Assembly: GCA_946402905.1 (NCBI GenBank)
Contig: CAMIYC010000017.1
Span: forward strand, 1-57,662
Direction: 5' to 3'
Origin: an uncultured Prevotellaceae bacterium
Lineage (GTDB): Bacteria > Bacteroidota > Bacteroidia > Bacteroidales > Bacteroidaceae
DNA: 57,662 nucleotides
The notes beneath the pieces were generated by a model. That model was not told the origin of the DNA and searched no databases. It saw only the letters and a list, made by a program, of their open reading frames with translations. The translations under genes and the position numbers were made by a program. Positions 1 to 32,587 of the stretch are shown in pieces (the first letter of the stretch is position 1; each line of letters begins with the position of its first letter).

Positions 1-709
1 GTATGGTGCGGAACTGCATCGACTTGGCTTCGAAGGTGAGCAGACGGTTGGTGAGAAGCTCGCCTACGCCGGTGAAATACTTCAGCGTCTCGGCTGCCTG
101 GATGGTGCCAAGCATGCCGGCGATGGCTCCGAGCACTCCGGCCTGCGAGCAGGTGGGCACTGCTCCGGCGGGTGGTGGCTCCTTGAACATGCAACGGTAG
201 CAGGCCGTGCCGGGCAGATGGGTGAACGTCTGGCCGTTGAAACGCAGTATGCCGCCGTGGGAGAATGGCTTGCCTGCCATGACGCATGCGTCGTTGATGA
301 GGAACTTCACGGGGAAGTTGTCGGTGCCGTCCACGATGAAGTCGTAATCCTTGATGATGTCGAGGGCATTCGTGGAGTCGAGGAATTCGTAGTAGGTGTC
401 CACAGTGACGTCGGGGTTGATGGCCTGGATTTTCTCCTTGGCACTCTCCACCTTCGGTCGGCCCACATCCTTTGTGAAATGGATGACCTGCCGCTGCAGG
501 TTGCTCAGGTCCACCACGTCGGCATCGATGATGCCTATGCGTCCGATGCCGGCAGCGGCAAGATAGAGTGATACGGGGGCACCGAGTCCTCCTGCTCCCA
601 CCACCAGCACGCGGGCGTTCAAGATTTTCTCCTGTCCCTCAACGCCCACGTCTTGCAGCAGTATATGTCGCGAATAGCGCAGTATCTGATCTTCTGTAAA
701 ATCTATCAT
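1..709 (-). CDS. ThiF/MoeB/HesA-family adenylyltransferase (E1-like), 3' end outside window
   Basis: Enzymes of this family use ATP to adenylate the C-terminal glycine of a ubiquitin-like sulfur carrier so that it can become a thiocarboxylate. I translated 236 residues from the ATG at 709. The Rossmann nucleotide loop GAGGLG is at 38-43, an R-Q pair lies near 73, a DGTDN motif is near 127-131, a CxxC half zinc site is at C170/C173, and C187 sits at the place of the conserved family cysteine. The second CxxC expected near the C-terminus lies beyond the window. The start overlaps the stop of the ThiS-like gene (ATGA), and a GGAGGAGG Shine-Dalgarno lies six bases upstream, so the pair should be translationally coupled. 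Whether its role is thiamine, molybdopterin or amino-acid sulfur transfer cannot be told from this protein alone. The context, with a cysteine desulfurase and homocysteine/cysteine synthases, favours sulfur-amino-acid or general sulfur trafficking. Confidence 0.9.
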   Translation of the reverse strand, partial: MIDFTEDQILRYSRHILLQDVGVEGQEKILNARVLVVGAGGLGAPVSLYLAAAGIGRIGIIDADVVDLSNLQRQVIHFTKDVGRPKVESAKEKIQAINPDVTVDTYYEFLDSTNALDIIKDYDFIVDGTDNFPVKFLINDACVMAGKPFSHGGILRFNGQTFTHLPGTACYRCMFKEPPPAGAVPTCSQAGVLGAIAGMLGTIQAAETLKYFTGVGELLTNRLLTFEAKSMQFRTI

Positions 710-918
710 AGTGAGCCTCCTCCCATGAAGTACAGGAAATCTACCACGTCGCCTTCTTTTATCTCCAGCGCGTCCCACTCTGAGCGATCCACGAAGTCGT
801 CGTTCACTTGCACCGAAACCATTTCGGGCTGTTCCACATTGTTCTGTCTGATAAGTTCTGTGAGGCTGAGGCCTGACTCCACCTCCTGCACCTCGCCGTT
901 TACTGTAATCTTTGCCAT
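706..918 (-). CDS. ThiS/MoaD-like sulfur carrier protein with two extra C-terminal residues
   Basis: This 70-residue beta-grasp protein matches the size and pattern of ThiS-like sulfur carriers: it starts MAKITVNGE, has a central helix, and ends GDVVDFLYFMGGGSL. In working carriers the terminal Gly-Gly must be free so that the adjacent ThiF-like enzyme can activate it. Here Ser-Leu follows the glycines, so a protease would have to trim it, as reported for HcyS, QbsE and CysO-type carriers. No JAMM-type protease gene is in the window. The GGA GGA GGC codons of the glycines also form the Shine-Dalgarno of the next gene. It lies 17 nt downstream of the cysteine desulfurase, the plausible sulfur source. 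A role in thiamine synthesis is possible, but no thiazole genes are nearby. Confidence 0.88.
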   Translation of the reverse strand: MAKITVNGEVQEVESGLSLTELIRQNNVEQPEMVSVQVNDDFVDRSEWDALEIKEGDVVDFLYFMGGGSL

Positions 919-935
919 AGTTTTATTTCACAATT

Positions 936-2501
936 TTACGATCTGCCTATTATCTTCTTGATTGCTATCACTAATTTGTCTACGTCGTCACGGGTATTGT
1001 AGAGTGCGAACGTGGGGCGCACGCTCATCTCGTAGCCGAGGGCACGCAGGGCGGGCTGGGCACAGTGGTGACCGGCACGCACGGCAATGCCTTCCTTGTC
1101 GAGCAAGGTGCCCACTTCGGGCACGGGGATGCCGTCGAGTACGAAGCTGACTACTGAGACGCGTTGTTTGGGATTGCCGATGAGTGTCAGTCCGGGTATC
1201 TGGCCTAATTGCTCGCGGGCGTATTCCGTCAGCTGGTGCTCGTGGTGCTCAATGTTGCGGATGCCGATATGGCTCACGTAGTCGAGGGCTTCACCGAGTC
1301 CGATGGCGTCGGCCACATTGGGTGTGCCGGCCTCGAAGCGTGCCGGCGGCACATTGTATTCCGTGCGCTCTATGGTGACGTCCTTGATCATGTTGCCGCC
1401 GCCCTGCCAGGGTTGCATCTTGTCGAGCAGTTCCTTGCGGCCATAGACCACACCGATGCCGTTGGGGCCGTAGATTTTGTGGTCGCTGAACACGAAGAAG
1501 TCGGCTCCCAGCTGTTGCACGTCGACGGGCGTGTGTGCTATCGACTGTGCGCCGTCGATAAGCACCGGGATCTGGTGGGAGTGGGCGATATCGATGATAC
1601 GCTGCACGTCGTTGATGGTGCCGAACGTGTTGTTGACATGGCCTACAGAGACGAAGCGCGTGCGCGGGGTGATGAGCCGCTCCAGTTCCGAGAGAATCAG
1701 GTCGCCGTTCTGGTCGGTGGGGATGGCTCTGAGTGTGGCACCACGCTCCTGGCAGACACGCTGCCAGGGCACGATGTTGGCATGATGGTCCAGCTCCGAC
1801 ACTATGACTTCGTCGCCTGGCGTGAGGTATTGCCGTCCGTAGGTCTGCGCCACGAGATTGATGCCCTCGGTGGTGCCGCGCACGAAGATGATTTCCTCGA
1901 TTGTGGCGGCATTGATGAACCGCTGCACCTTTTCGCGGGCCTCCTCGTAGGCATCCGTGGCACGGGCGGCCAGCGTGTGGGCCCCGCGGTGAATGTTCGA
2001 ATTATACGTCTTGTAGTAATCCGAAATCTTGTCAATCACCTGGATGGGCTTCTGCGTTGTGGCACCGTTGTCGAGCCATACCAGGTCGTGGCCGTTCACC
2101 CGCTGGTTGAGCACGGGGAAGTCTTTCTTGATCTGCTCCGAGTTCAGCGTGTCGGCCTCTTCGTAGTGCAGGTCTCTGAGTTTCTGCGTCTCGGGGATGC
2201 CTATGCCGAAGCCGTCTTCCTGTGGGAGTGTCCGGGGCGTGGCGGCTTCGGTGTCGTCGATGTAGGGCAGCTCCTCGAATCCGTTGCCGCCCACCAGCAA
2301 CTGCTGGAATCCAGCCTTGAGCCTGTCGAGGTTCAGGGGGGTGCCCAGCCATTGGCCTGCCGAGAGCAGCTGCCCGTCGGGCAATACCTGCCGTCGGGCA
2401 TCCTGCCACTCTTCGGGACAATATTTCCGGGCGATTTCCTTCAGCAGTGCCAGCGAGTTGTCTTGACCGGGAAAGCTGTTGAGTTCTGATAGGTTGATCA
2501 T
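936..2501 (-). CDS. SufS-type cysteine desulfurase with N-terminal extension, probable encapsulin cargo
   Basis: A PLP enzyme that removes sulfur from cysteine as a persulfide and leaves alanine. The catalytic domain starts near residue 122. D316 and Q319 (LIDGAQS) contact PLP, K342 in FSDHKIYGPNG is the Schiff-base lysine, and C480 in RAGHHCAQP is the persulfide cysteine. Ordinary SufS proteins have about 405 residues; this one has 521 because of a roughly 120-residue N-terminal part. That part has a helical segment (residues 5-70, including an LDRLKAGFQQLL stretch) followed by an acidic, proline-containing linker (about 80-118). Cysteine desulfurases paired with family 2 encapsulins carry such extensions for loading into the shell, so I infer the same here. 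Its ATG follows the shell gene's TAA with no gap, which predicts coupled synthesis of shell and cargo. Confidence 0.93.
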   Translation of the reverse strand: MINLSELNSFPGQDNSLALLKEIARKYCPEEWQDARRQVLPDGQLLSAGQWLGTPLNLDRLKAGFQQLLVGGNGFEELPYIDDTEAATPRTLPQEDGFGIGIPETQKLRDLHYEEADTLNSEQIKKDFPVLNQRVNGHDLVWLDNGATTQKPIQVIDKISDYYKTYNSNIHRGAHTLAARATDAYEEAREKVQRFINAATIEEIIFVRGTTEGINLVAQTYGRQYLTPGDEVIVSELDHHANIVPWQRVCQERGATLRAIPTDQNGDLILSELERLITPRTRFVSVGHVNNTFGTINDVQRIIDIAHSHQIPVLIDGAQSIAHTPVDVQQLGADFFVFSDHKIYGPNGIGVVYGRKELLDKMQPWQGGGNMIKDVTIERTEYNVPPARFEAGTPNVADAIGLGEALDYVSHIGIRNIEHHEHQLTEYAREQLGQIPGLTLIGNPKQRVSVVSFVLDGIPVPEVGTLLDKEGIAVRAGHHCAQPALRALGYEMSVRPTFALYNTRDDVDKLVIAIKKIIGRS

Positions 2502-3941
2502 TTATTTCTCCACTTTATTACGGTGCTGATAGTCGTGATAGTAGCCTACTTCTACATTTTCCAGTACAGCGATGGCATCATCGGTCAGTGTGGCCAGCGA
2601 GAAGTATTTGGTGAGCAGATAGGAAGCCACGCCGAACTTGTCGAGCCCCATCAGACGGGCCGAGAGCGAGGGGCCTATCTCGCCGGGAATGCCGCTTTGG
2701 TGAAGTCCGATGACCCCCTGGCTCTTCTCGCCGACACGTACAAGGATAATCTTTGTGGTGCCTACGCCGCGGCCTGTCAGGTACTGGCCTTCCACTTCCA
2801 CCTTGTCGGATGGGATGATGGGTACGCCGCGCCAAAGGATGACTTTCGTGCCAAAGAGGTCGGTGGTCACGGGCGGAACGCCGCGCCAAGTGCACTCGCG
2901 CTCGAAGGCGGCGATGGCACGCGGATGGGCAATGAAGAAGGCGGGTTCCTTCCACACCAGCGAGAGCAGTTCGTCGAGGTCATCGGGCGTGGGCGAGCCG
3001 TAGCGGGTGGTGATGCGGTAGGCAGGGTTCACGGCCGAGAGCAGGCCGAACTTCTTGTTGTTGATGAGTTCCCACTCCTGGCGTTCCTTAATGCTCTCTA
3101 TCGAGAGGCGCAGCTGCTCTTCCAGCTGGTTGTAGGGATTGTTGTATAGGTCGCTGACGCGGGTATGTACGCGTACCACGGTCTGCAGCGTGTTAAGCGA
3201 GTATTCCGTGGGCTGCTCCTCGTAGTCGATATAGGTTTCGGGAATGATGTTGTCCTCCTCGTGTCCGCTCACCAGGTCGATGTGCTTCTCGCCGTGGTCG
3301 TTCACTGTGGCTTTCAGGCGCAGCTGCTTGTCGACGGCCTTGGTGAAGGTCTCGCGGAAGTCGGGCACCTCCTTGATGAACGTCTCCAGTTCCTTCAGTT
3401 TCAGACCCAGAAAGACGGTGGGCGTGATGGCACGCACCGAGACGGTGGACTCGGCATCGTCGAGCAGGTCGGTCTCGCCGAAATACTCACCGTCGCCCAG
3501 CAGGGCTATGCGCAGTTCCTCGCCGTGGGGTCCCTTGCTGATGACCTCGGCCTGACCGTTGGCTACGATAAAGAATTTCTGCTTGTCCTTGCCTTCCTCT
3601 ACGAAGAGCTGGCCTATTTCCACTTCCTTTGTCTCAAACGAGCGGGCCAGGCGGTTCACTATCTCGTCGTCGAACTCCGAGAAAAGCGGGATGGCCTTCA
3701 GGCTCTTGGCCGAGAACGATGGCACGCCGTTGAGATACTGTATCGGCAGGCGTTCGCTCTTGCGTAGCTCTACCTTTGTGCGGTTCACACGGAATGTGCC
3801 GCCGCTTACCTGCACCCACGGCAGCAGTTTCAGCAATAGCCTTGGGGTAATACTGCCCATCTGAGGGGCGGTCTTGGTTGTCGTTGCCAGTCTTCTGGCG
3901 GTGGCAGTGGTCACACTGCGCTGGAGATTTGAATCTGCCAT
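2502..3941 (-). CDS. Family 2B encapsulin shell protein with inserted cNMP-binding domain
   Basis: This 479-residue protein has the layout of family 2B encapsulins, HK97-fold proteins that self-assemble into protein nanocompartments. It has an N-terminal arm (1-75) and a CRP-like cyclic-nucleotide-binding fold at about 78-205, including the phosphate-cassette region GDGEYFGETDLLDD near 149-162. The HK97 core follows (about 240-479), with TTRYGSP near 311-317 and GLDKFGVASYLLTKYFSLA near 432-450. The Arg-Ala/Ser pair that holds cyclic-nucleotide phosphate in classical CRP domains is not obvious (ESTVSVRA here), so the ligand may not be cAMP. It directly precedes a cysteine desulfurase with a cargo-like extension. 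Recognition rests on family memory, not a search; a simple CRP-type regulator is unlikely because there is no helix-turn-helix and the C-terminal 240 residues are capsid-like. Confidence 0.87.
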   Translation of the reverse strand: MADSNLQRSVTTATARRLATTTKTAPQMGSITPRLLLKLLPWVQVSGGTFRVNRTKVELRKSERLPIQYLNGVPSFSAKSLKAIPLFSEFDDEIVNRLARSFETKEVEIGQLFVEEGKDKQKFFIVANGQAEVISKGPHGEELRIALLGDGEYFGETDLLDDAESTVSVRAITPTVFLGLKLKELETFIKEVPDFRETFTKAVDKQLRLKATVNDHGEKHIDLVSGHEEDNIIPETYIDYEEQPTEYSLNTLQTVVRVHTRVSDLYNNPYNQLEEQLRLSIESIKERQEWELINNKKFGLLSAVNPAYRITTRYGSPTPDDLDELLSLVWKEPAFFIAHPRAIAAFERECTWRGVPPVTTDLFGTKVILWRGVPIIPSDKVEVEGQYLTGRGVGTTKIILVRVGEKSQGVIGLHQSGIPGEIGPSLSARLMGLDKFGVASYLLTKYFSLATLTDDAIAVLENVEVGYYHDYQHRNKVEK

Positions 3942-4532
3942 AGTCTTAATCTTGTTTATTGTTATACATTTTCTTTATTCAAACTTCGCATTCGCTTAAT
4001 TTCTTTGGAGTTATGAAGTTAAGGTGTGTTCTATTAATTCTGTTTGATATATAGGCATTATTCTGCTCAATCTGTTTCGGTCGCTTTTTGTTTTTATTCG
4101 GTGCATAGTGTCAAGTCTCATCGGTCGTATAGCCCGCTATACTCCCTCTTCAACTTACACTCTGCACTCGAATAAAAAGCAAAAATCGCCTCGACATAAT
4201 TAATAGAACCCACCTTAAAGAAGTCACCGCTTCGCTCGTCCTTCGGACAGTAGTTAAGCCATTACCTTGATGGCGCAGTGGTGTGACATGTTGCATTTGG
4301 CTTAACTTCTTTAACTACTGAATTCTTAACTACTTCAGAAAGTGGAAATTTCTATTATTTAACTTCCGCAAGCTCCAGTTATCAGGTTATCAGGTCGTTA
4401 GGTCGCTACGCTTAGAGGTTTTTGGTGAGATATGCATAACTACAGAGCATTCCTTGGTCATTTCACCTTATTACCTCATAACCTTAAAACCTTGAAAACC
4501 GACAAGTGAAGCAAATGCGGAACTTGTATCTA
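3942..4532. other. 591-bp intergenic region between tusA-like gene and encapsulin gene
   Basis: No credible ORF lies here. The region holds the imperfect inverted-repeat element described at 4019-4218. It also has a second stretch (about 4250-4340) with repeated TTAACT/AGTTAA words in both directions, and short CAGGTTAT/CAGGTCGTTAGGTCG repeats near 4384-4408. I see no good TAnnTTTG promoter with a correctly spaced TTTG upstream of the encapsulin gene; the nearest weak match on the minus strand is around 3981. Whether the encapsulin half is transcribed from its own promoter or by read-through from the upstream genes cannot be decided by eye. Confidence 0.6.
4019..4218. repeat. Imperfect long inverted repeat, MITE-like or cruciform-forming
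   Basis: The outer arms TTAAGGTGTGTTCTATTAATT (from 4019) and AATTAATAGAACCCACCTTAA (to 4218) are inverted copies. The inner arms at about 4076-4104 and 4163-4194 pair around GCTTTTTGTTTTTATTCG and CGAATAAAAAGCAAAAATCGC. A perfect 7-bp-arm palindrome, GTATAGCCCGCTATAC (4128-4143), is in the middle. The arms are spaced unequally: an extra 33 bp lies only on the left. There is no transposase inside. It could be a non-autonomous transposable element or a large hairpin in the transcript. Confidence 0.65.
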
Positions 4533-4814
4533 TTATTTCTTGATGATTACTTTGTAGGTCGTACCTTCCACATGCTCCACGCCAATGACGTTGTAGCCCT
4601 GGTCTTTGGCATTGCGCGGAACGTTGTCGAGGGGTTCGCCCTCCGTGAGAAGTACCTCCAGAATGTCGCCCGGCTGAAGCTTTGATAGTTCGATTTTGGT
4701 CTTGACGAATGTCATCGGACAGTGCTCTTTTGTGATGTCCAATACGTGGGGCTTGCCACTATCCTCTTCTGAATGAATGGCTGGCTGGGTGCTTTTTTTC
4801 TTGAATAATCCCAT
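4533..4814 (-). CDS. tusA: TusA-like sulfurtransferase
   Basis: TusA-family proteins are small sulfur carriers that take a persulfide from a cysteine desulfurase or DsrE-type protein on the cysteine of a CPxx motif. This 93-residue protein has the motif as C32-P33 in EHCPMTFVKTK, inside the usual beta-alpha-beta-alpha-beta-beta pattern (LDITKE..., LSKLQPGDILEVLL, VIGVEHVEGTTYKVIIKK). A lysine-rich N-terminus of about 22 residues precedes the core. It lies 62 nt downstream of the DsrE-like gene, in the same orientation. TusA and DsrE partners often occur together and pass sulfur to each other, so here they probably link the desulfurase to later acceptors. The symbol is a family name; the exact partner is inferred. 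Confidence 0.87.
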   Translation of the reverse strand: MGLFKKKSTQPAIHSEEDSGKPHVLDITKEHCPMTFVKTKIELSKLQPGDILEVLLTEGEPLDNVPRNAKDQGYNVIGVEHVEGTTYKVIIKK

Positions 4815-4876
4815 AACTCTTATATTTTTTGTTGATGTATCATGTCATACTTGTCTTTAGAAGGGGTGGTGGGCTG

Positions 4877-5356
4877 CTAAATAAACAGTGTCTGGCCGCC
4901 TTCGCTCAGTTTCAGGAATGACGCCACGCCGAGCACATCCTTCACTTCGGGAATGAAGTCCTCCTTCCTCAGCCCGAGCACGTGCATGGCCATCTCGCAG
5001 GCATAGAGGTTGATGCCGAGTGCCTTGGCGGCTTCCACCAGCTCCTCCAGCGTGGCCACATTGTTCTTGCGCATCAGATGGCGGAAAATCTTTGGTCCGG
5101 CACCGAGGAAGTTGAAGCGGCTTGTCGGCGTGACGCTGAGCCCGCCCATCATGAAGCCGAAGAGCTTTGTCAGCCAGTTGCCGCCGGTAAATGAGCGTCC
5201 CTTCTTCTGCTTGATGGCGTCAAGTCCCCAGAAGGTGAAGAAGATGTTCACCTCGTAGCCCACGGCGGCTGCTCCCGTGCCGAGTGTGAACACAGCCGTC
5301 AGTTTGTCGAAATCGCCACTGAAGGCGATGATGGATAGTTTCTTTGTCTCTGCCAT
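4877..5356 (-). CDS. DsrE/DsrF/DrsH-like sulfur relay protein (COG2210-type)
   Basis: This protein has 159 residues from the ATG at 5356. A longer frame runs into cysK and is not used, because the short start leaves a tidy 4-nt gap after the cysK stop. The protein begins KKLSIIAFSGDFDKLTAVFTLGTGAAAVG, as in DsrE-like proteins. A hydrophobic region FFTFWGLDAI and a Gly/Met-rich segment (FGFMMGGLSV) follow, with a cysteine at position 120 in LYACEMAMHVLG where relay proteins carry their sulfur-accepting cysteine. Members are thought to bind and transfer persulfide sulfur, often next to TusA or rhodaneses. Neighbouring cysK, tusA-like and cysteine desulfurase genes support such a role. The precise donor and acceptor are not visible. 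Confidence 0.85.
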   Translation of the reverse strand: MAETKKLSIIAFSGDFDKLTAVFTLGTGAAAVGYEVNIFFTFWGLDAIKQKKGRSFTGGNWLTKLFGFMMGGLSVTPTSRFNFLGAGPKIFRHLMRKNNVATLEELVEAAKALGINLYACEMAMHVLGLRKEDFIPEVKDVLGVASFLKLSEGGQTLFI

Positions 5357-5360
5357 AGTC

Positions 5361-6296
5361 TTATTCGTGATTAAACATTTGAGTGGAGAGGTAACGCTCA
5401 CCCGTGTCGGGCAGCAACACCACAATGGTCTTGCCTTCGTTTTCGGGGCGGCGGGCCAGTTTGATGGCGGCGGCAGTGGCTGCACCGCTCGATATGCCGG
5501 CCAGCACTCCGTCTTTCGTGGCCAAAAGGCGGCCCACAGCAAATGCCTCGTTGTCCTTGATGCGTATCATCTCATCGTAAACAGTGGTGCAGAGCACCTT
5601 TGGCTGGAATCCTGCTCCGATGCCCTGCAATTTGTGCGGTCCGGGCTTCTCGCCGCTGAGCACCGACGAGCCGTAGGGCTCCACGCCCACAATCTTCACC
5701 TTCGGGTTGTATTGTTTCAGCACCTGACCCACGCCCGTGATGGTGCCGCCCGTTCCGATGCCGGCCACGAAGATGTCCACCTTGCCGTCGGTGTCGCGCA
5801 GGATTTCCTCGGCTGTGGTCAGTCGGTGTATTTCGGGATTGGCGGGGTTCTCAAACTGCTGTGGGATATAGGCATTGCCGATTTCCTCTTTCAGTTCCTG
5901 CGCCTTGCGGATGGCGCCTGCCATTCCCTCGTAGGCCGGAGTGAGCACCAGTTCGGCTCCGAGCGACCGCAGCAGCTGGCGGCGCTCCACCGACATGGCG
6001 TCGGGCATGGTCAGTATGAGGCGGTAGCCGCGGATGGCGGCAATGAAAGCCAAGCCGATGCCGGTGTTGCCGCTTGTCGGTTCTATGATGGTTGTACCGG
6101 GACCCGCGAGTCCCTTGCGCTCAGCCCGGTCAATGAGTGCCAGCGCTGTGCGGTCTTTCACGCTGCGTGCAGGATTCAGGTATTCCAACTTGACCACCAC
6201 CCTTGCCTTGAGTTTCAGTTCACGTTCCGTTCCCGTCAGTTCCAGCAGCGGCGTGTTGCCGATCAATTCTATCAAGTTTTTTGCTATCTTTGCCAT
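5361..6296 (-). CDS. cysK: Cysteine synthase (O-acetylserine sulfhydrylase)
   Basis: This enzyme joins O-acetylserine and sulfide (or a sulfur donor) to make cysteine, using PLP in the cytoplasm. The 311-residue protein is full length for CysK. It shows [10 protein letters not shown] near the start, PLP lysine K47 in NPARSVKDR, the substrate loop [11 protein letters not shown] (about 73-83), the glycine-rich phosphate loop [12 protein letters not shown] (about 178-189), and SSGAATAAA near the C-terminus. It sits between the trans-sulfuration enzyme (27 nt upstream) and the DsrE-like gene (4 nt downstream) in one probable operon. CysM or a cystathionine beta-synthase homologue are the alternatives, but the loop sequences suit CysK better. 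A serine acetyltransferase gene is not present nearby. Confidence 0.93.
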
Positions 6297-6323
6297 GTTT
6301 CCTTTTTGTTAGTTTGTTTCTTC

Positions 6324-7520
6324 TCAGATGTCGTCTGTCAGCAGTGCTTGCTTGATGTCGTGCAGCAGGTCGAGTGGGTCCTCAAGGCCAATAGACAAAC
6401 GGATGGTGGTCTGCCTGACGTCCATCTGCTCCAGCTGCCTTTCGGGGAAGAGGCCGAAGATGGTCGAGGCGGGGTGGATGGCCAGTGTGCGGCTGTCGAA
6501 AAGATTTGTGGCACGGTGGATGAGCTTCAGACGGTTGAGGAAACAGAAGCATTTCTCCCTCGAATCCAGGTCGATGGTCATCATGGCTCCTGCACTGGGG
6601 CCAAACTGCCGTTGGGCCAGGGCGTGGAATGGGTTGTCGGGCAGTCCGATATAGTTCACTGAGTTGATTACCCCCACGTCCTTCAATTCCTTTGCCAGCC
6701 AGAGTGCATTGGCGGCCTGACGCTGGTAGCGTACGTCGAGGGTTTCAAGTCCGAGTGTCTGCAGATAGGCCACCTTTGGGGTCATGTAGGCTCCCAGATT
6801 CACCAGCAATTCATATTTCACTCGTTGGTTGAACACAGGGTAGTTGCCGTAGTCGATAATAAGTCCGCCAAGCGATGTGCCACCGCCGGAGATGTATTTT
6901 GTGCTTGATACCACTTCGATGTCAACACCAAGGTCTTTTAATGATGTTTCCGTGAAAGGGATAACTGTTGAGTCGGCTATCACGGGTACGCCTTTGCGGT
7001 GGGCTATTTCGGAAATAGCCTTCAGGTCGGCTACTTCCTGCTGGGGATTGGTAACAATTTCCAGAAATACGCAACAGGTCGTCTCGTCGATGGCTCCTTC
7101 CACGGCTTCCAGGTCGGTAAGGTCGCGCAGACGAGACTTCACGCCAAACCGCAGCAATGTGCCCGAAATCAGCGACAGTGTATTGCCGAAAAGATGGCGC
7201 GATGTGACAATGGTGCGGCCTTGGGCACTCACAGCAAGCAGTGCATTGCTGATGGCGGCCATGCCAGAGTTGAAGGCTGTCACATGGGCTGCTCCTGTCA
7301 GTGCTTTCACCCTTTGCTCGAAGTTGGTCACTGTGGGATTTTCCATACGGGCATAGTCGGGGGCGCTGATGCGGTTGCAGAAAGCATCCGACATCTCTTC
7401 GGCGTCGCCAAACTCGTATGCCACATTGTTGTATACTGGTACTGCCAGCGCACCATAGGCATCGGGTCTGACATAAGGCGTATGTATTGCTATCGTCTGT
7501 CTTTTCAGCATTCTCTTCAT
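6324..7520 (-). CDS. Cys/Met-metabolism PLP enzyme, probably O-acyl-homoserine sulfhydrylase
   Basis: A fold-type I PLP enzyme of the family that includes MetB, MetC, MetY, MetZ and methionine gamma-lyase. The protein has 398 residues. YARMENPTVTNFEQRVKAL (about 56-74), the GM pair in AFNSGMAAISNALL, the PLP aspartate in IADSTVIPF (D183) and the Schiff-base lysine K208 in SSTKYISGGG are all clear. Synthesis of homocysteine from acylated homoserine and a sulfur donor is the best guess from the sulfur-carrier context; lyase activity cannot be excluded. It is the first gene of the cluster. Its promoter implies a leader of only about ten bases with no Shine-Dalgarno, and a second ATG at 7511 is an alternative start. 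Confidence 0.85.
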   Translation of the reverse strand: MKRMLKRQTIAIHTPYVRPDAYGALAVPVYNNVAYEFGDAEEMSDAFCNRISAPDYARMENPTVTNFEQRVKALTGAAHVTAFNSGMAAISNALLAVSAQGRTIVTSRHLFGNTLSLISGTLLRFGVKSRLRDLTDLEAVEGAIDETTCCVFLEIVTNPQQEVADLKAISEIAHRKGVPVIADSTVIPFTETSLKDLGVDIEVVSSTKYISGGGTSLGGLIIDYGNYPVFNQRVKYELLVNLGAYMTPKVAYLQTLGLETLDVRYQRQAANALWLAKELKDVGVINSVNYIGLPDNPFHALAQRQFGPSAGAMMTIDLDSREKCFCFLNRLKLIHRATNLFDSRTLAIHPASTIFGLFPERQLEQMDVRQTTIRLSIGLEDPLDLLHDIKQALLTDDI

Positions 7521-7536
7521 TATTTGATTTCGCTTG

Positions 7537-7567
7537 CAAAGTTACACGGTTTGGTAATATCTTCCAA
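7537..7567 (-). promoter_or_regulatory. Bacteroidota-type promoter of the sulfur cluster
   Basis: On the minus strand, TAACTTTG (7544-7537) fits the TAnnTTTG -7 box, and TTTG (7567-7564) lies 19 bp upstream as the -33 box. Transcription should start near 7530, leaving only about ten bases before the ATG at 7520. That leaves no room for a leader riboswitch. The -33 box lies inside the 7557-7592 palindrome, so a protein bound there would block RNA polymerase. Confidence 0.75.
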
Positions 7568-7592
7568 ATATCTTGCATATTTCGGAAAATAT
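7557..7592. promoter_or_regulatory. Imperfect palindrome between divergent lrp-like and sulfur-cluster genes
   Basis: ATATCTTCCAAATAT (7557-7571) and ATATTTCGGAAAATAT (7577-7592) are near-perfect inverted copies around CTTGC. The palindrome overlaps the -33 regions of both divergent promoters. AT-rich palindromes of this form suit Lrp/AsnC binding. I infer that the adjacent Lrp-type protein binds here and controls itself and the cluster. Confidence 0.6.
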
Positions 7593-7603
7593 CACTAAAT
7601 TTG
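7572..7603 (+). promoter_or_regulatory. Promoter of the Lrp-type regulator gene
   Basis: TAAATTTG (7596-7603) fits the -7 box exactly, and CTTG (7572-7575) lies 20 bp upstream with one mismatch to TTTG. The predicted start is near 7609, giving a leader of about 65 bases to the ATG at 7674. Confidence 0.6.
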
Positions 7604-7673
7604 CATCGAAGAAAGAAAATGCTTCTAAATAGTGTAAGTAAAATATTTACAAAATAGAAAAATAATCCGAAAG

Positions 7674-8138
7674 ATGGCTGATACGTTAGACCAAACCGAC
7701 TTGCAGATACTGAAAACGCTGCAGAAAAACGCGAAACTCACCACCAAGGAACTGGCCGATGCGGTGCATCTCACGCCGACACCGGTCTTTGAGAGGCAGA
7801 AACGCTTAGAGCGTCAGGGGTACATAAAGAAATATGTGGCTGTGCTCAATCCGGAGAAGCTCGGACTGGGATTGCTGGTGTTCTGCAAGGTGAAGCTCAA
7901 GCAGATAAATCATGAGATTGCTGATACATTCACATTCCGAATATTGCGCATACCTGAGGTGACTGAGTGCTACAACACAAGTGGTGCATACGATTATCTG
8001 CTAAAAGTGCGCGTGCGCGACATGAAGCAGTATCAGGAGTTTGTGCTCACCAAACTGGGCGACATCGACTCGGTGTCTTCTATCGAGAGCACTTTCGTGA
8101 TGAGCGAAATAAAGCAAAACTACGGCATCAACTTGTAG
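7674..8138 (+). CDS. Lrp/AsnC-family transcriptional regulator
   Basis: The protein has 154 residues. An N-terminal helix-turn-helix (about 5-60: LDQTDLQILKTLQKNAKLTTKELADAV followed by TPTPVFERQKRLERQGYI) is joined to an AsnC-type ligand-binding/oligomerisation domain (about 68-150). That domain includes RIPEVTECYNTSGAYDYLLKVRVRD, the usual effector-pocket region. Lrp-family proteins sense amino acids and often regulate the divergently transcribed gene. This one faces the sulfur cluster across a 153-bp gap with an inverted repeat, so it is the prime candidate for control by methionine, cysteine or a related amino acid. The effector is inferred from context only. Confidence 0.93.
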   Translation: MADTLDQTDLQILKTLQKNAKLTTKELADAVHLTPTPVFERQKRLERQGYIKKYVAVLNPEKLGLGLLVFCKVKLKQINHEIADTFTFRILRIPEVTECYNTSGAYDYLLKVRVRDMKQYQEFVLTKLGDIDSVSSIESTFVMSEIKQNYGINL

Positions 8139-32499: not shown

Positions 32500-32587
32500 C
32501 GGAAAGTGAGGGATTCAAACCCCCGATACCCGTAATGGGTATACCGGATTTCGAGTCCAGCGCATTCGATCACTCTGCCAACTTTCC
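32500..32587 (-). tRNA. tRNA-Ser (anticodon CGA)
   Basis: The 88-nt minus-strand sequence begins GGAAAGTTGGCAGAGTG and ends ACTTTCC plus discriminator G. The anticodon stem-loop CTGGA-CTCGAAA-TCCGG carries CGA (codon UCG). A long variable arm (TATACCCATTACGGGTAT) is typical of serine tRNAs, and the T-loop GGTTTGAATCC is clear. CCA is not encoded. A hairpin with T-tract follows at about 32467-32490. The 3' 11 bases are duplicated at 28421 (element integration site). Confidence 0.96.

What the first reader, a model, noticed from the sequence alone, without database searches (positions are those of the whole stretch)
1..8138. Encapsulin-centred sulfur-mobilisation and amino-acid sulfur-fixation cluster
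Seen: eight same-strand genes and one divergent Lrp-type regulator place a family 2B encapsulin shell and a cysteine desulfurase with a long N-terminal extension beside TusA-like, DsrE-like, ThiS-like and ThiF-like relay proteins, CysK and a homocysteine-forming-type PLP enzyme. Known: family 2 encapsulins with cysteine desulfurase cargo have been described as sulfur compartments, and ThiS-like carriers can donate thiocarboxylate sulfur in amino-acid synthesis. Inference: a shell-enclosed desulfurase could store or shield sulfur and feed two relay routes into cysteine and homocysteine. I do not know of a described system that joins all these parts.
Basis: partly seen in the sequence, partly recalled or inferred. 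Interest (0 to 1): 0.93.

Follow-up and report, generated by a model that had tools for sequence, protein, structure and literature searches.

The report
Protein-shelled sulfur bank with withdrawal pathway
Rumen bacteria related to Prevotella carry a conserved gene cluster for a virus-like protein shell, an enzyme predicted to strip sulfur from cysteine inside it, and a chain of carrier proteins that would likely return that sulfur to make cysteine and a methionine precursor; if true, this would answer where sulfur goes after it enters such a shell.

Summary
Eight same-strand genes (MetX, CysK, DsrE2, TusA, family 2B encapsulin, cysteine desulfurase CyD, ThiS, truncated ThiF) lie at 2-7520, with a divergent Lrp gene. 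In 33 long relatives, DsrE2, TusA and CyD accompany the shell gene in 33, ThiS-ThiF-JAMM in 31, a homocysteine-synthase-like enzyme in 32, in several gene orders. All 64 ThiS carriers read there continue past FMGGG, as expected of a JAMM-trimmed carrier. In encapsulin-free relatives the same ThiS-ThiF-JAMM set sits in a sulfate-assimilation operon with a sulfite reductase::TusA fusion, so the shell-desulfurase arm looks like an alternative sulfur donor to one thiocarboxylate relay. Best reading, untested by experiment: the shell deposits cysteine sulfur and the relay pays it back into cysteine and homocysteine. Against it: MetX homologues also occur without any relay, then with a PatB C-S lyase (29 of 29 genomes); DsrE2's role is unproven; JAMM is not found in this assembly. 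Shell and relay are each known; I found no paper joining them in the library searched.

The parts
2502..3941 (-). family 2B encapsulin shell protein, 479 aa, with a cNMP-like insert domain
   Evidence: NF041163 567.9 bits (cut-off 400), PF19307 375.5 bits; best solved chains 9bje, 6x8m (SrpI), 9bhu
936..2501 (-). CyD, SufS-type cysteine desulfurase with a 110-120-residue N-terminal extension; likely shell cargo
   Evidence: TIGR01979 558 bits (cut-off 475.1); NF041166 717 bits, below its cut-off 800, catalytic part only; GHHC active-site stretch in 74 of 75 relatives
706..918 (-). ThiS-like sulfur carrier ending FMGGGSL (C-terminal tail beyond GG)
   Evidence: TIGR01683 67.6 bits; tail in 64 of 64 relatives
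2..709 (-). ThiF/MoeB-type adenylyltransferase, cut by the contig end (236 of about 269 aa)
   Evidence: PF00899 272.2 bits; 267-273 aa in 58 of 63 relatives
4533..4814 (-). TusA-like sulfurtransferase, CPMTFVKTK motif
   Evidence: PF01206 74 bits; motif in 74 of 76 relatives
4877..5356 (-). DsrE2-like protein, 159 aa
   Evidence: PF13686 135.6 bits (scanned as 4877-5365); NF047629 DsrE2 69 bits, below its cut-off 210; start
5361..6296 (-). CysK-type cysteine synthase
   Evidence: TIGR01139 440.1 bits, cut-off 350.95
6324..7520 (-). MetX: Cys/Met-metabolism PLP enzyme, predicted homocysteine-forming
   Evidence: PF01053 294.7 bits; best solved chain 3ri6 at 336.7 bits, next 226.8
7674..8138 (+). 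divergent Lrp/AsnC-type regulator
   Evidence: PF01037 79.2 bits, PF13412 61 bits; nearby in 12 of 80 relatives
3942..4532 (-). 591-nt stretch without a gene between TusA and the shell gene, holding a palindromic element (4019-4218)
   Evidence: the gap has a median of 45 nt in 77 relatives

Best explanation
The locus encodes a family 2B encapsulin with a cysteine desulfurase that is likely its cargo, whose sulfur would be handed by DsrE2 and TusA to a ThiF-activated, JAMM-trimmed ThiS carrier that is predicted to donate it as thiocarboxylate to CysK and MetX and so would return stored cysteine sulfur to cysteine and homocysteine. Shown by sequence: the gene set, its conservation in changing gene orders, the tail on the carrier, and the exchange of the shell-desulfurase arm for a sulfite reductase::TusA fusion in encapsulin-free relatives. 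Inferred: cargo loading, storage in the shell, direction of sulfur flow, trimming and thiocarboxylate formation, and which enzyme accepts the sulfur. The desulfurase would deposit sulfur when cysteine is plentiful, and the relay would withdraw it without free sulfide. In the window's genus the main output is likely homocysteine (methionine); in other families of the order it is likely cysteine.
For: Profiles of the parts. Linkage: of 33 relatives longer than 21 kb (among the best 80 of 347), CyD, TusA, DsrE2 in 33; ThiS, ThiF, JAMM in 31; MetX or MetXb in 32; CysK in 15, with ThiS-ThiF-JAMM in three different places and a fourth in L154, L188 and L189, where JAMM lies between TusA and the shell gene. 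In other families of the order L188 and L189 hold CysK-ThiS-ThiF-DsrE2-TusA-JAMM-shell-CyD on one strand (CysK split over two frames in L188), L190 holds the same eight genes in another order, L191 lacks ThiF and JAMM in the 18 kb fetched. Genus tally of 249 genomes: shell 61, JAMM 73, both 56; in the 5 shell-only genomes a contig end cuts the locus. Donor exchange: the sulfite reductase::TusA fusion is in 17 of 249 and all 17 have JAMM, 8 without a shell; L137 reads MetXb-ThiS-ThiF-JAMM-SiR::TusA, and in L140 the fusion is followed by NAD-binding, tetrapyrrole methylase, PAPS-reductase-type and EF-Tu-type genes. Carrier tails: 64 of 64 have 1 to 23 residues after FMGGG, while two thiamine-operon ThiS proteins of the same genus end exactly in GG. 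JAMM motif in 60 of 61. PatB pattern: MetX (at least 60% identical) goes with a strong PatB in 29 of 29 genomes without shell or JAMM, in 10 of 26 with either. MetX and MetXb have Wolinella MetY 3ri6 as best solved match (that 3ri6 is Wolinella's thiocarboxylate-dependent enzyme is recalled). A thiamine role is unlikely: a strong ThiG (over 350 bits) in 3 of 20 shell-positive genomes, only a 24.6-bit partial match in the window's own, whose assembly has this one ThiS-family match.
Against: JAMM is not found in the window's own assembly. MetX homologues of 62-79% identity occur in genomes with neither shell nor JAMM, so 3ri6-likeness does not prove use of a thiocarboxylate, and MetX may make cystathionine or use sulfide. 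CysK is missing from 18 of 33 long relatives. L070 and L073 lack ThiS-ThiF-JAMM within the 21 kb held. The genome has two further strong Cys/Met PLP enzymes, so other routes to homocysteine may exist. A DsrE2B homologue in Metallosphaera reacted with none of the sulfur compounds tested (passages of PMC4175335). In G335, another family of the class, shell and CyD stand without relay genes within the 17 kb read. In some genomes the relay lies 8 to 45 kb from the shell (L196, L198, G615). 11 of the 20 genomes have weak ThiG matches (up to 34.5 bits), most over Pfam's low cut-off, which I take for other enzymes. The CyD N-terminal extension was not matched by the cargo profile. Storage in this shell has not been shown. 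The Fisher values treat related species as independent.
Confidence: 0.6

Rival explanations
1. A conduit without storage: the shell only insulates CyD, and the relay moves sulfur at once from cysteine to homocysteine, doing the job of cystathionine synthase plus PatB lyase.
For: Strong PatB accompanies MetX in 29 of 29 genomes without shell or JAMM and in 10 of 26 with either, directly beside it in 11 of 11 such loci read; MetX or MetXb in 32 of 33 long relatives.
Against: CysK in the same cluster (15 of 33; 4 of 5 loci in other families) would rebuild the substrate of CyD, which makes little sense without a store; PatB, CysK and relay stand together in L192-L195.
Confidence: 0.2
2. A shared sulfur-trafficking hub: ThiS-ThiF-JAMM serves other thio-products (tRNA, cofactor or a natural product) and only happens to be encoded beside the amino-acid enzymes.
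For: Thiocarboxylate carriers serve many products (passages of PMC6225789); the relay is separable from the shell (L196, L198, G615).
Against: No strong ThiG in 17 of 20 shell-positive genomes; MetX or MetXb is in 32 of 33 long loci; the encapsulin-free form sits in a sulfate-assimilation operon, beside MetXb in L137.
Confidence: 0.1
3. Plain sulfide economy: CysK and MetX use free sulfide, the shell handles excess cysteine or oxidative stress, and ThiS is not their donor.
For: CysK and MetX families normally use sulfide (established enzymology, recalled); MetX homologues occur without relay.
Against: Does not explain why JAMM is present in 56 of 61 shell genomes with the five exceptions at contig ends, nor the tailed carriers.
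Confidence: 0.1

Closest known systems
SrpI-type family 2A encapsulin with CyD cargo (Synechococcus elongatus; passages of PMC8049743)
   Same: Shell of the same family beside a cysteine desulfurase with a long N-terminal extension; up-regulated on sulfur starvation there.
   Different: 2B shell here; the fate of the sulfur was left open there (sulfur carrier or store), while here a dedicated relay is encoded next to it.
Family 2B encapsulin operons with cysteine desulfurase (199 counted; passages of PMC8346489)
   Same: Same shell class and cargo type.
   Different: The accessory genes named in the passages read are serine acetyltransferase and rhodanese; TusA does not occur in the main text (0); DsrE2, JAMM and homocysteine enzymes were not searched for there. 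The supplement was not read.
Protein thiocarboxylate-dependent methionine synthesis of Wolinella succinogenes (HcyS/HcyF/HcyD/MetY; names recalled, paper not held; cited in passages of PMC6225789)
   Same: Tailed ThiS carrier, E1-like ThiF, JAMM protease, MetY-like enzyme whose best solved match is 3ri6.
   Different: Donor arm: shell, desulfurase, DsrE2 and free TusA instead of sulfite reductase (the Wolinella donor is recalled); JAMM seen only in relatives of the window.
CysO/Mec+/CysM cysteine synthesis of Mycobacterium tuberculosis (names recalled; thiocarboxylate-dependent cysteine synthesis cited in a passage of PMC6225789)
   Same: JAMM-trimmed carrier beside a cysteine synthase; resembles CysK-ThiS-ThiF-...-JAMM of L188 and L189.
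   Different: CysK-type rather than CysM-type by profile (440 against 285 bits); no shell there (recalled).

Membership tests
Family 2B encapsulin | HK97-type SrpI-like shell domain | tested here: met
   PF19307 375.5 bits; NF041163 567.9 against cut-off 400
Family 2B encapsulin | cNMP-binding-like domain inserted in the shell protein | tested here: met
   PF00027 54.3 bits at residues 105-190; such domains are reported not to bind cyclic nucleotides (passage of PMC12407261)
Family 2B encapsulin | assembles into an icosahedral particle | not testable with these tools
   needs expression and electron microscopy
NF041166 family 2A desulfurase cargo | whole-protein score over the curated cut-off, N-terminal targeting part included | tested here: not met
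   717.2 bits against 800; only residues 112-517 match
SufS-type cysteine desulfurase | SufS profile and active-site Cys | tested here: met
   TIGR01979 558 against 475.1; GHHC in 74 of 75 relatives
Thiocarboxylate-dependent homocysteine pathway (Wolinella type) | ThiS-like carrier with extra residues after GG | tested here: met
   window ends FMGGGSL; 64 of 64 relatives
Thiocarboxylate-dependent homocysteine pathway (Wolinella type) | JAMM protease | tested here: inconclusive
   31 of 33 long relatives; contig ends before it in the window; not found in G000
Thiocarboxylate-dependent homocysteine pathway (Wolinella type) | E1-like adenylyltransferase | tested here: met
   PF00899 272.2 bits
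Thiocarboxylate-dependent homocysteine pathway (Wolinella type) | MetY accepts sulfur from the carrier thiocarboxylate | not testable with these tools
   best solved match is 3ri6, but relay-free genomes hold MetX homologues too
Thiamine ThiS | ends in GG and works with ThiG | tested here: not met
   tails in 64 of 64; strong ThiG in 3 of 20 shell-positive genomes, a 24.6-bit partial match only in G000
DsrE2 (NF047629) | score over the curated cut-off | tested here: not met
   69 bits against 210; PF13686 over its cut-off, so DsrE2-like only

The most novel reading that the evidence does not exclude
A protein organelle with its own withdrawal pathway: the encapsulin banks sulfur taken from cysteine, and a JAMM-matured thiocarboxylate carrier pays it out into cysteine and methionine without free sulfide. 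In rumen Prevotella this bank is an interchangeable alternative to sulfate reduction as sulfur donor for amino-acid synthesis.
Probability: 0.5. Interest if true: 0.92.

Novelty: new variant of a known kind. Interest (0 to 1): 0.82.

Why it matters
The first paper on family 2 encapsulins left open where sulfur goes after the enclosed desulfurase releases it (passage of PMC8049743). This locus names the likely takers by genetics: DsrE2, TusA, and a tailed ThiS carrier with its E1 enzyme and protease, beside the amino-acid synthases. It turns the question into a reconstitution with eight or nine purified proteins. It also links a virus-derived compartment to methionine and cysteine supply in rumen bacteria; an isolate, Xylanibacter ruminicola D31d, carries MetX, DsrE2, TusA, shell, CyD, ThiS, ThiF and JAMM in one run (L108).

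Tried and rejected
Thiamine role for ThiS-ThiF: rejected (and the tails). Cyclic-nucleotide control of the shell: not supported; the insert lacks the usual arginine of the phosphate-binding motif (by eye on the A1 consensus, motif recalled) and PMC12407261 reports that family 2B insert domains do not bind cyclic nucleotides (passage). My idea that PatB takes CysK's slot was wrong: L192-L195 carry both. My idea that shell and SiR::TusA exclude each other was wrong: 9 of 17 SiR::TusA genomes have both. A CysK tree had only two outside sequences and settles nothing. A scan for RNA families at gathering scores found only the tRNA at 32500-32587, nothing in the 591-nt gap. No structure was predicted: profiles already settle the folds, and the tool folds no complexes. 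Paper searches for the joined system: encapsulin+Prevotella gave 2 papers, with one encapsulin mention each (search listing only); encapsulin+sulfurtransferase+homocysteine 0; encapsulin+'sulfur carrier protein' 0; encapsulin+cysteine desulfurase+sulfur 6, of which I read passages of three; the term HcyS met only the abbreviation for homocysteine in the 20 of 415 papers listed. The library holds open-licence papers only and no supplements could be read.
Full report
What is there. The window is contig 17 of a 3.66-Mb draft genome, read from its first base; its nearest named relatives are rumen Prevotella and, at 93% shell identity, Xylanibacter ruminicola. On the minus strand lie MetX, CysK, a DsrE2-like protein, TusA, a family 2B encapsulin, a SufS-type cysteine desulfurase (CyD), a ThiS-like carrier and ThiF, the last cut by the contig end; an Lrp gene diverges from MetX. 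Seven of the eight minus-strand genes are complete. CyD starts at the base after the shell stop codon. Between TusA and the shell lie 591 nt without a gene; in 77 relatives that gap has a median of 45 nt and exceeds 500 nt in two.

Is it conserved? A scan of one genome per species found 347 relatives of the shell; the tool kept the best 80 (shell identity 92-100%), so this set leans to close relatives. Reading all 80 with the window's proteins gives shell 80, CyD 78, TusA 77, DsrE2 76, ThiS 64, ThiF 63, JAMM 61, CysK 34, MetX 25, its sister MetXb 44. Many loci are cut by contig ends. In the 33 longer than 21 kb: CyD, TusA, DsrE2 33; ThiS, ThiF, JAMM 31; MetX or MetXb 32; CysK 15. L070 and L073 lack ThiS-ThiF-JAMM; L073 has only a fragment of MetX. 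Apart from the LuxR-type regulator (34 by clustering, 38 by translated search), the commonest other neighbour family is in 18 of 80 loci, which speaks against mere synteny, though short loci sample the flanks less. The order changes: of the 33, 15 have ThiS-ThiF-JAMM divergent upstream with MetXb downstream, 12 have MetX upstream and ThiS-ThiF-JAMM after CyD, 4 have ThiS-ThiF-JAMM upstream on the same strand, 2 lack it.

Outside the genus. A sample of 232 genomes of the order held the shell in 6, the window's own included; a sample of 395 of the class, searched with the 2A profile at E 1e-40, gave 5, of which the window's own and G335 have the 2B insert. L188 and L189 read CysK-ThiS-ThiF-DsrE2-TusA-JAMM-shell-CyD on one strand, with CysK split over two frames in L188; L190 has the same genes in another order; L191 lacks ThiF and JAMM in the 18 kb fetched; L187 is cut by a contig end and shows shell, CyD and MetXb. 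MetX is near in L188 only. G335 has shell and CyD without relay genes in the 17 kb read. So CysK and the relay mostly go with the shell outside the genus, and MetX or MetXb joins within it.

The missing protease. The protein next to ThiF in relatives matches Prok-JAB (84.1 bits, cut-off 25) and keeps the metal motif in 60 of 61. JAMM proteases free the diglycine end of tailed carriers in related systems (recalled). All 64 carriers read in the 80 loci end FMGGG plus 1 to 23 more residues of varied sequence; so do 13 of 13 further carriers from other arrangements and families. Two thiamine-operon ThiS proteins of the genus end exactly in GG. The protease was not found in the window's own assembly, whose contig stops in ThiF.

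Tallies in 249 genomes of the genus (same sample each time). Shell 61; JAMM 73; both 56, shell only 5, JAMM only 17, neither 171. In the 5 shell-only genomes a contig end cuts the locus (window, L074, L170-L173). Of the 17 JAMM-only genomes, 8 carry a sulfite reductase::TusA fusion; in the other 9 a contig end cuts the locus within about 3 kb of JAMM, and 3 of these show DsrE2, TusA or CyD pieces of the shell locus (L144, L146, L150). The fusion is in 17 of 249, all with JAMM, 9 also with a shell. In L137 the order is MetXb-ThiS-ThiF-JAMM-SiR::TusA, and in L140 the fusion is followed by NAD-binding, tetrapyrrole methylase, PAPS-reductase-type and EF-Tu-type genes, which I read as siroheme synthesis, CysD and CysN (names by family and context). 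In G615 the only JAMM match sits beside the fusion and the shell lies about 45 kb away. I take this as two donor arms, sulfate reduction or shell-housed desulfuration, for one relay.

MetX. Its best solved match is 3ri6 (336.7 bits; next 226.8), as for MetXb (360.4; next 272.2). This does not prove thiocarboxylate use: MetX at 62-79% identity is found in genomes without shell or JAMM. There it is paired with a PatB C-S lyase (469.2 bits, cut-off 340), within 271 nt in 11 of 11 such loci read. Counting MetX at 60% identity or more and PatB at 440 bits or more: PatB in 29 of 29 genomes without shell or JAMM, in 10 of 26 with either. So in this sample MetX stands without a strong PatB only where shell or JAMM is present. 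Weaker PatB paralogues of 34-47% exist in many genomes, the window's own included (36%; the weakest rows were not listed). The species are related, so the Fisher value (1.8e-7) overstates certainty.

Thiamine. Of 20 shell-positive genomes searched for ThiG, 3 have a strong match (over 350 bits); 11 others, the window's own among them (24.6 bits), have short weak matches of at most 34.5 bits, and 6 none. The window's assembly has one ThiS-family match, the one in the locus.

How it likely works. Known elsewhere: a cysteine desulfurase inside a family 2 shell (passages of PMC8049743), described as sulfur storage in later work (cited in a passage of PMC12407261; the storage paper itself is not held); TusA as partner of a cysteine desulfurase (title and abstract start of PMC11302665 in the listing); thiocarboxylate carriers in cysteine and methionine synthesis (passage of PMC6225789). 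Inferred here: CyD is the cargo through its N-terminal part, in which a short stretch around residues 20-31 is conserved; sulfur collects in the shell; DsrE2 and TusA draw it out; ThiF and JAMM ready the carrier; CysK and MetX take the sulfur. CysK in one cluster with CyD argues for a store rather than a one-way conduit, since the two would otherwise cancel.

Novelty. The shell-desulfurase pair and the thiocarboxylate relay are each known kinds. Their union was found in no paper of the searched library; the supplement of PMC8346489, which may list enriched neighbours, could not be read. I call it a new variant of a known kind.

Noticed in passing
window 4019-4218: A 200-nt palindromic element (25-nt arms, 92% complementary, with a second inner inverted repeat) sits between TusA and the shell gene; part of it recurs at 90% identity over 91 nt at a contig end of L078, so it may be a small mobile or repeat element.
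   Followed up: partly
L140:5773-8136: Sulfite reductase fused to a C-terminal TusA domain; relatives in 17 of 249 genomes of the genus, all 17 with a JAMM gene; a sulfur hand-over that would be built into one protein.
   Followed up: partly
L120:14269-14916 and similar: A LuxR-type regulator (GerE domain) lies near the locus in 38 of 80 relatives, and near MetX or JAMM in several encapsulin-free genomes; a possible regulator of this sulfur regulon.
   Followed up: no
L048 and L064; L072 and L074; G679: Some draft genomes carry two shell loci; true duplication or mixed bins cannot be told apart.
   Followed up: no
L077 and L084, between TusA and the shell gene: Gaps of about 0.9 and 1.6 kb at the same place as the window's long gap.
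   Followed up: no
L191:5367-6242: A gene reading like a nitrogenase iron protein (by eye) lies downstream of the shell operon in another family of the order.
   Followed up: no
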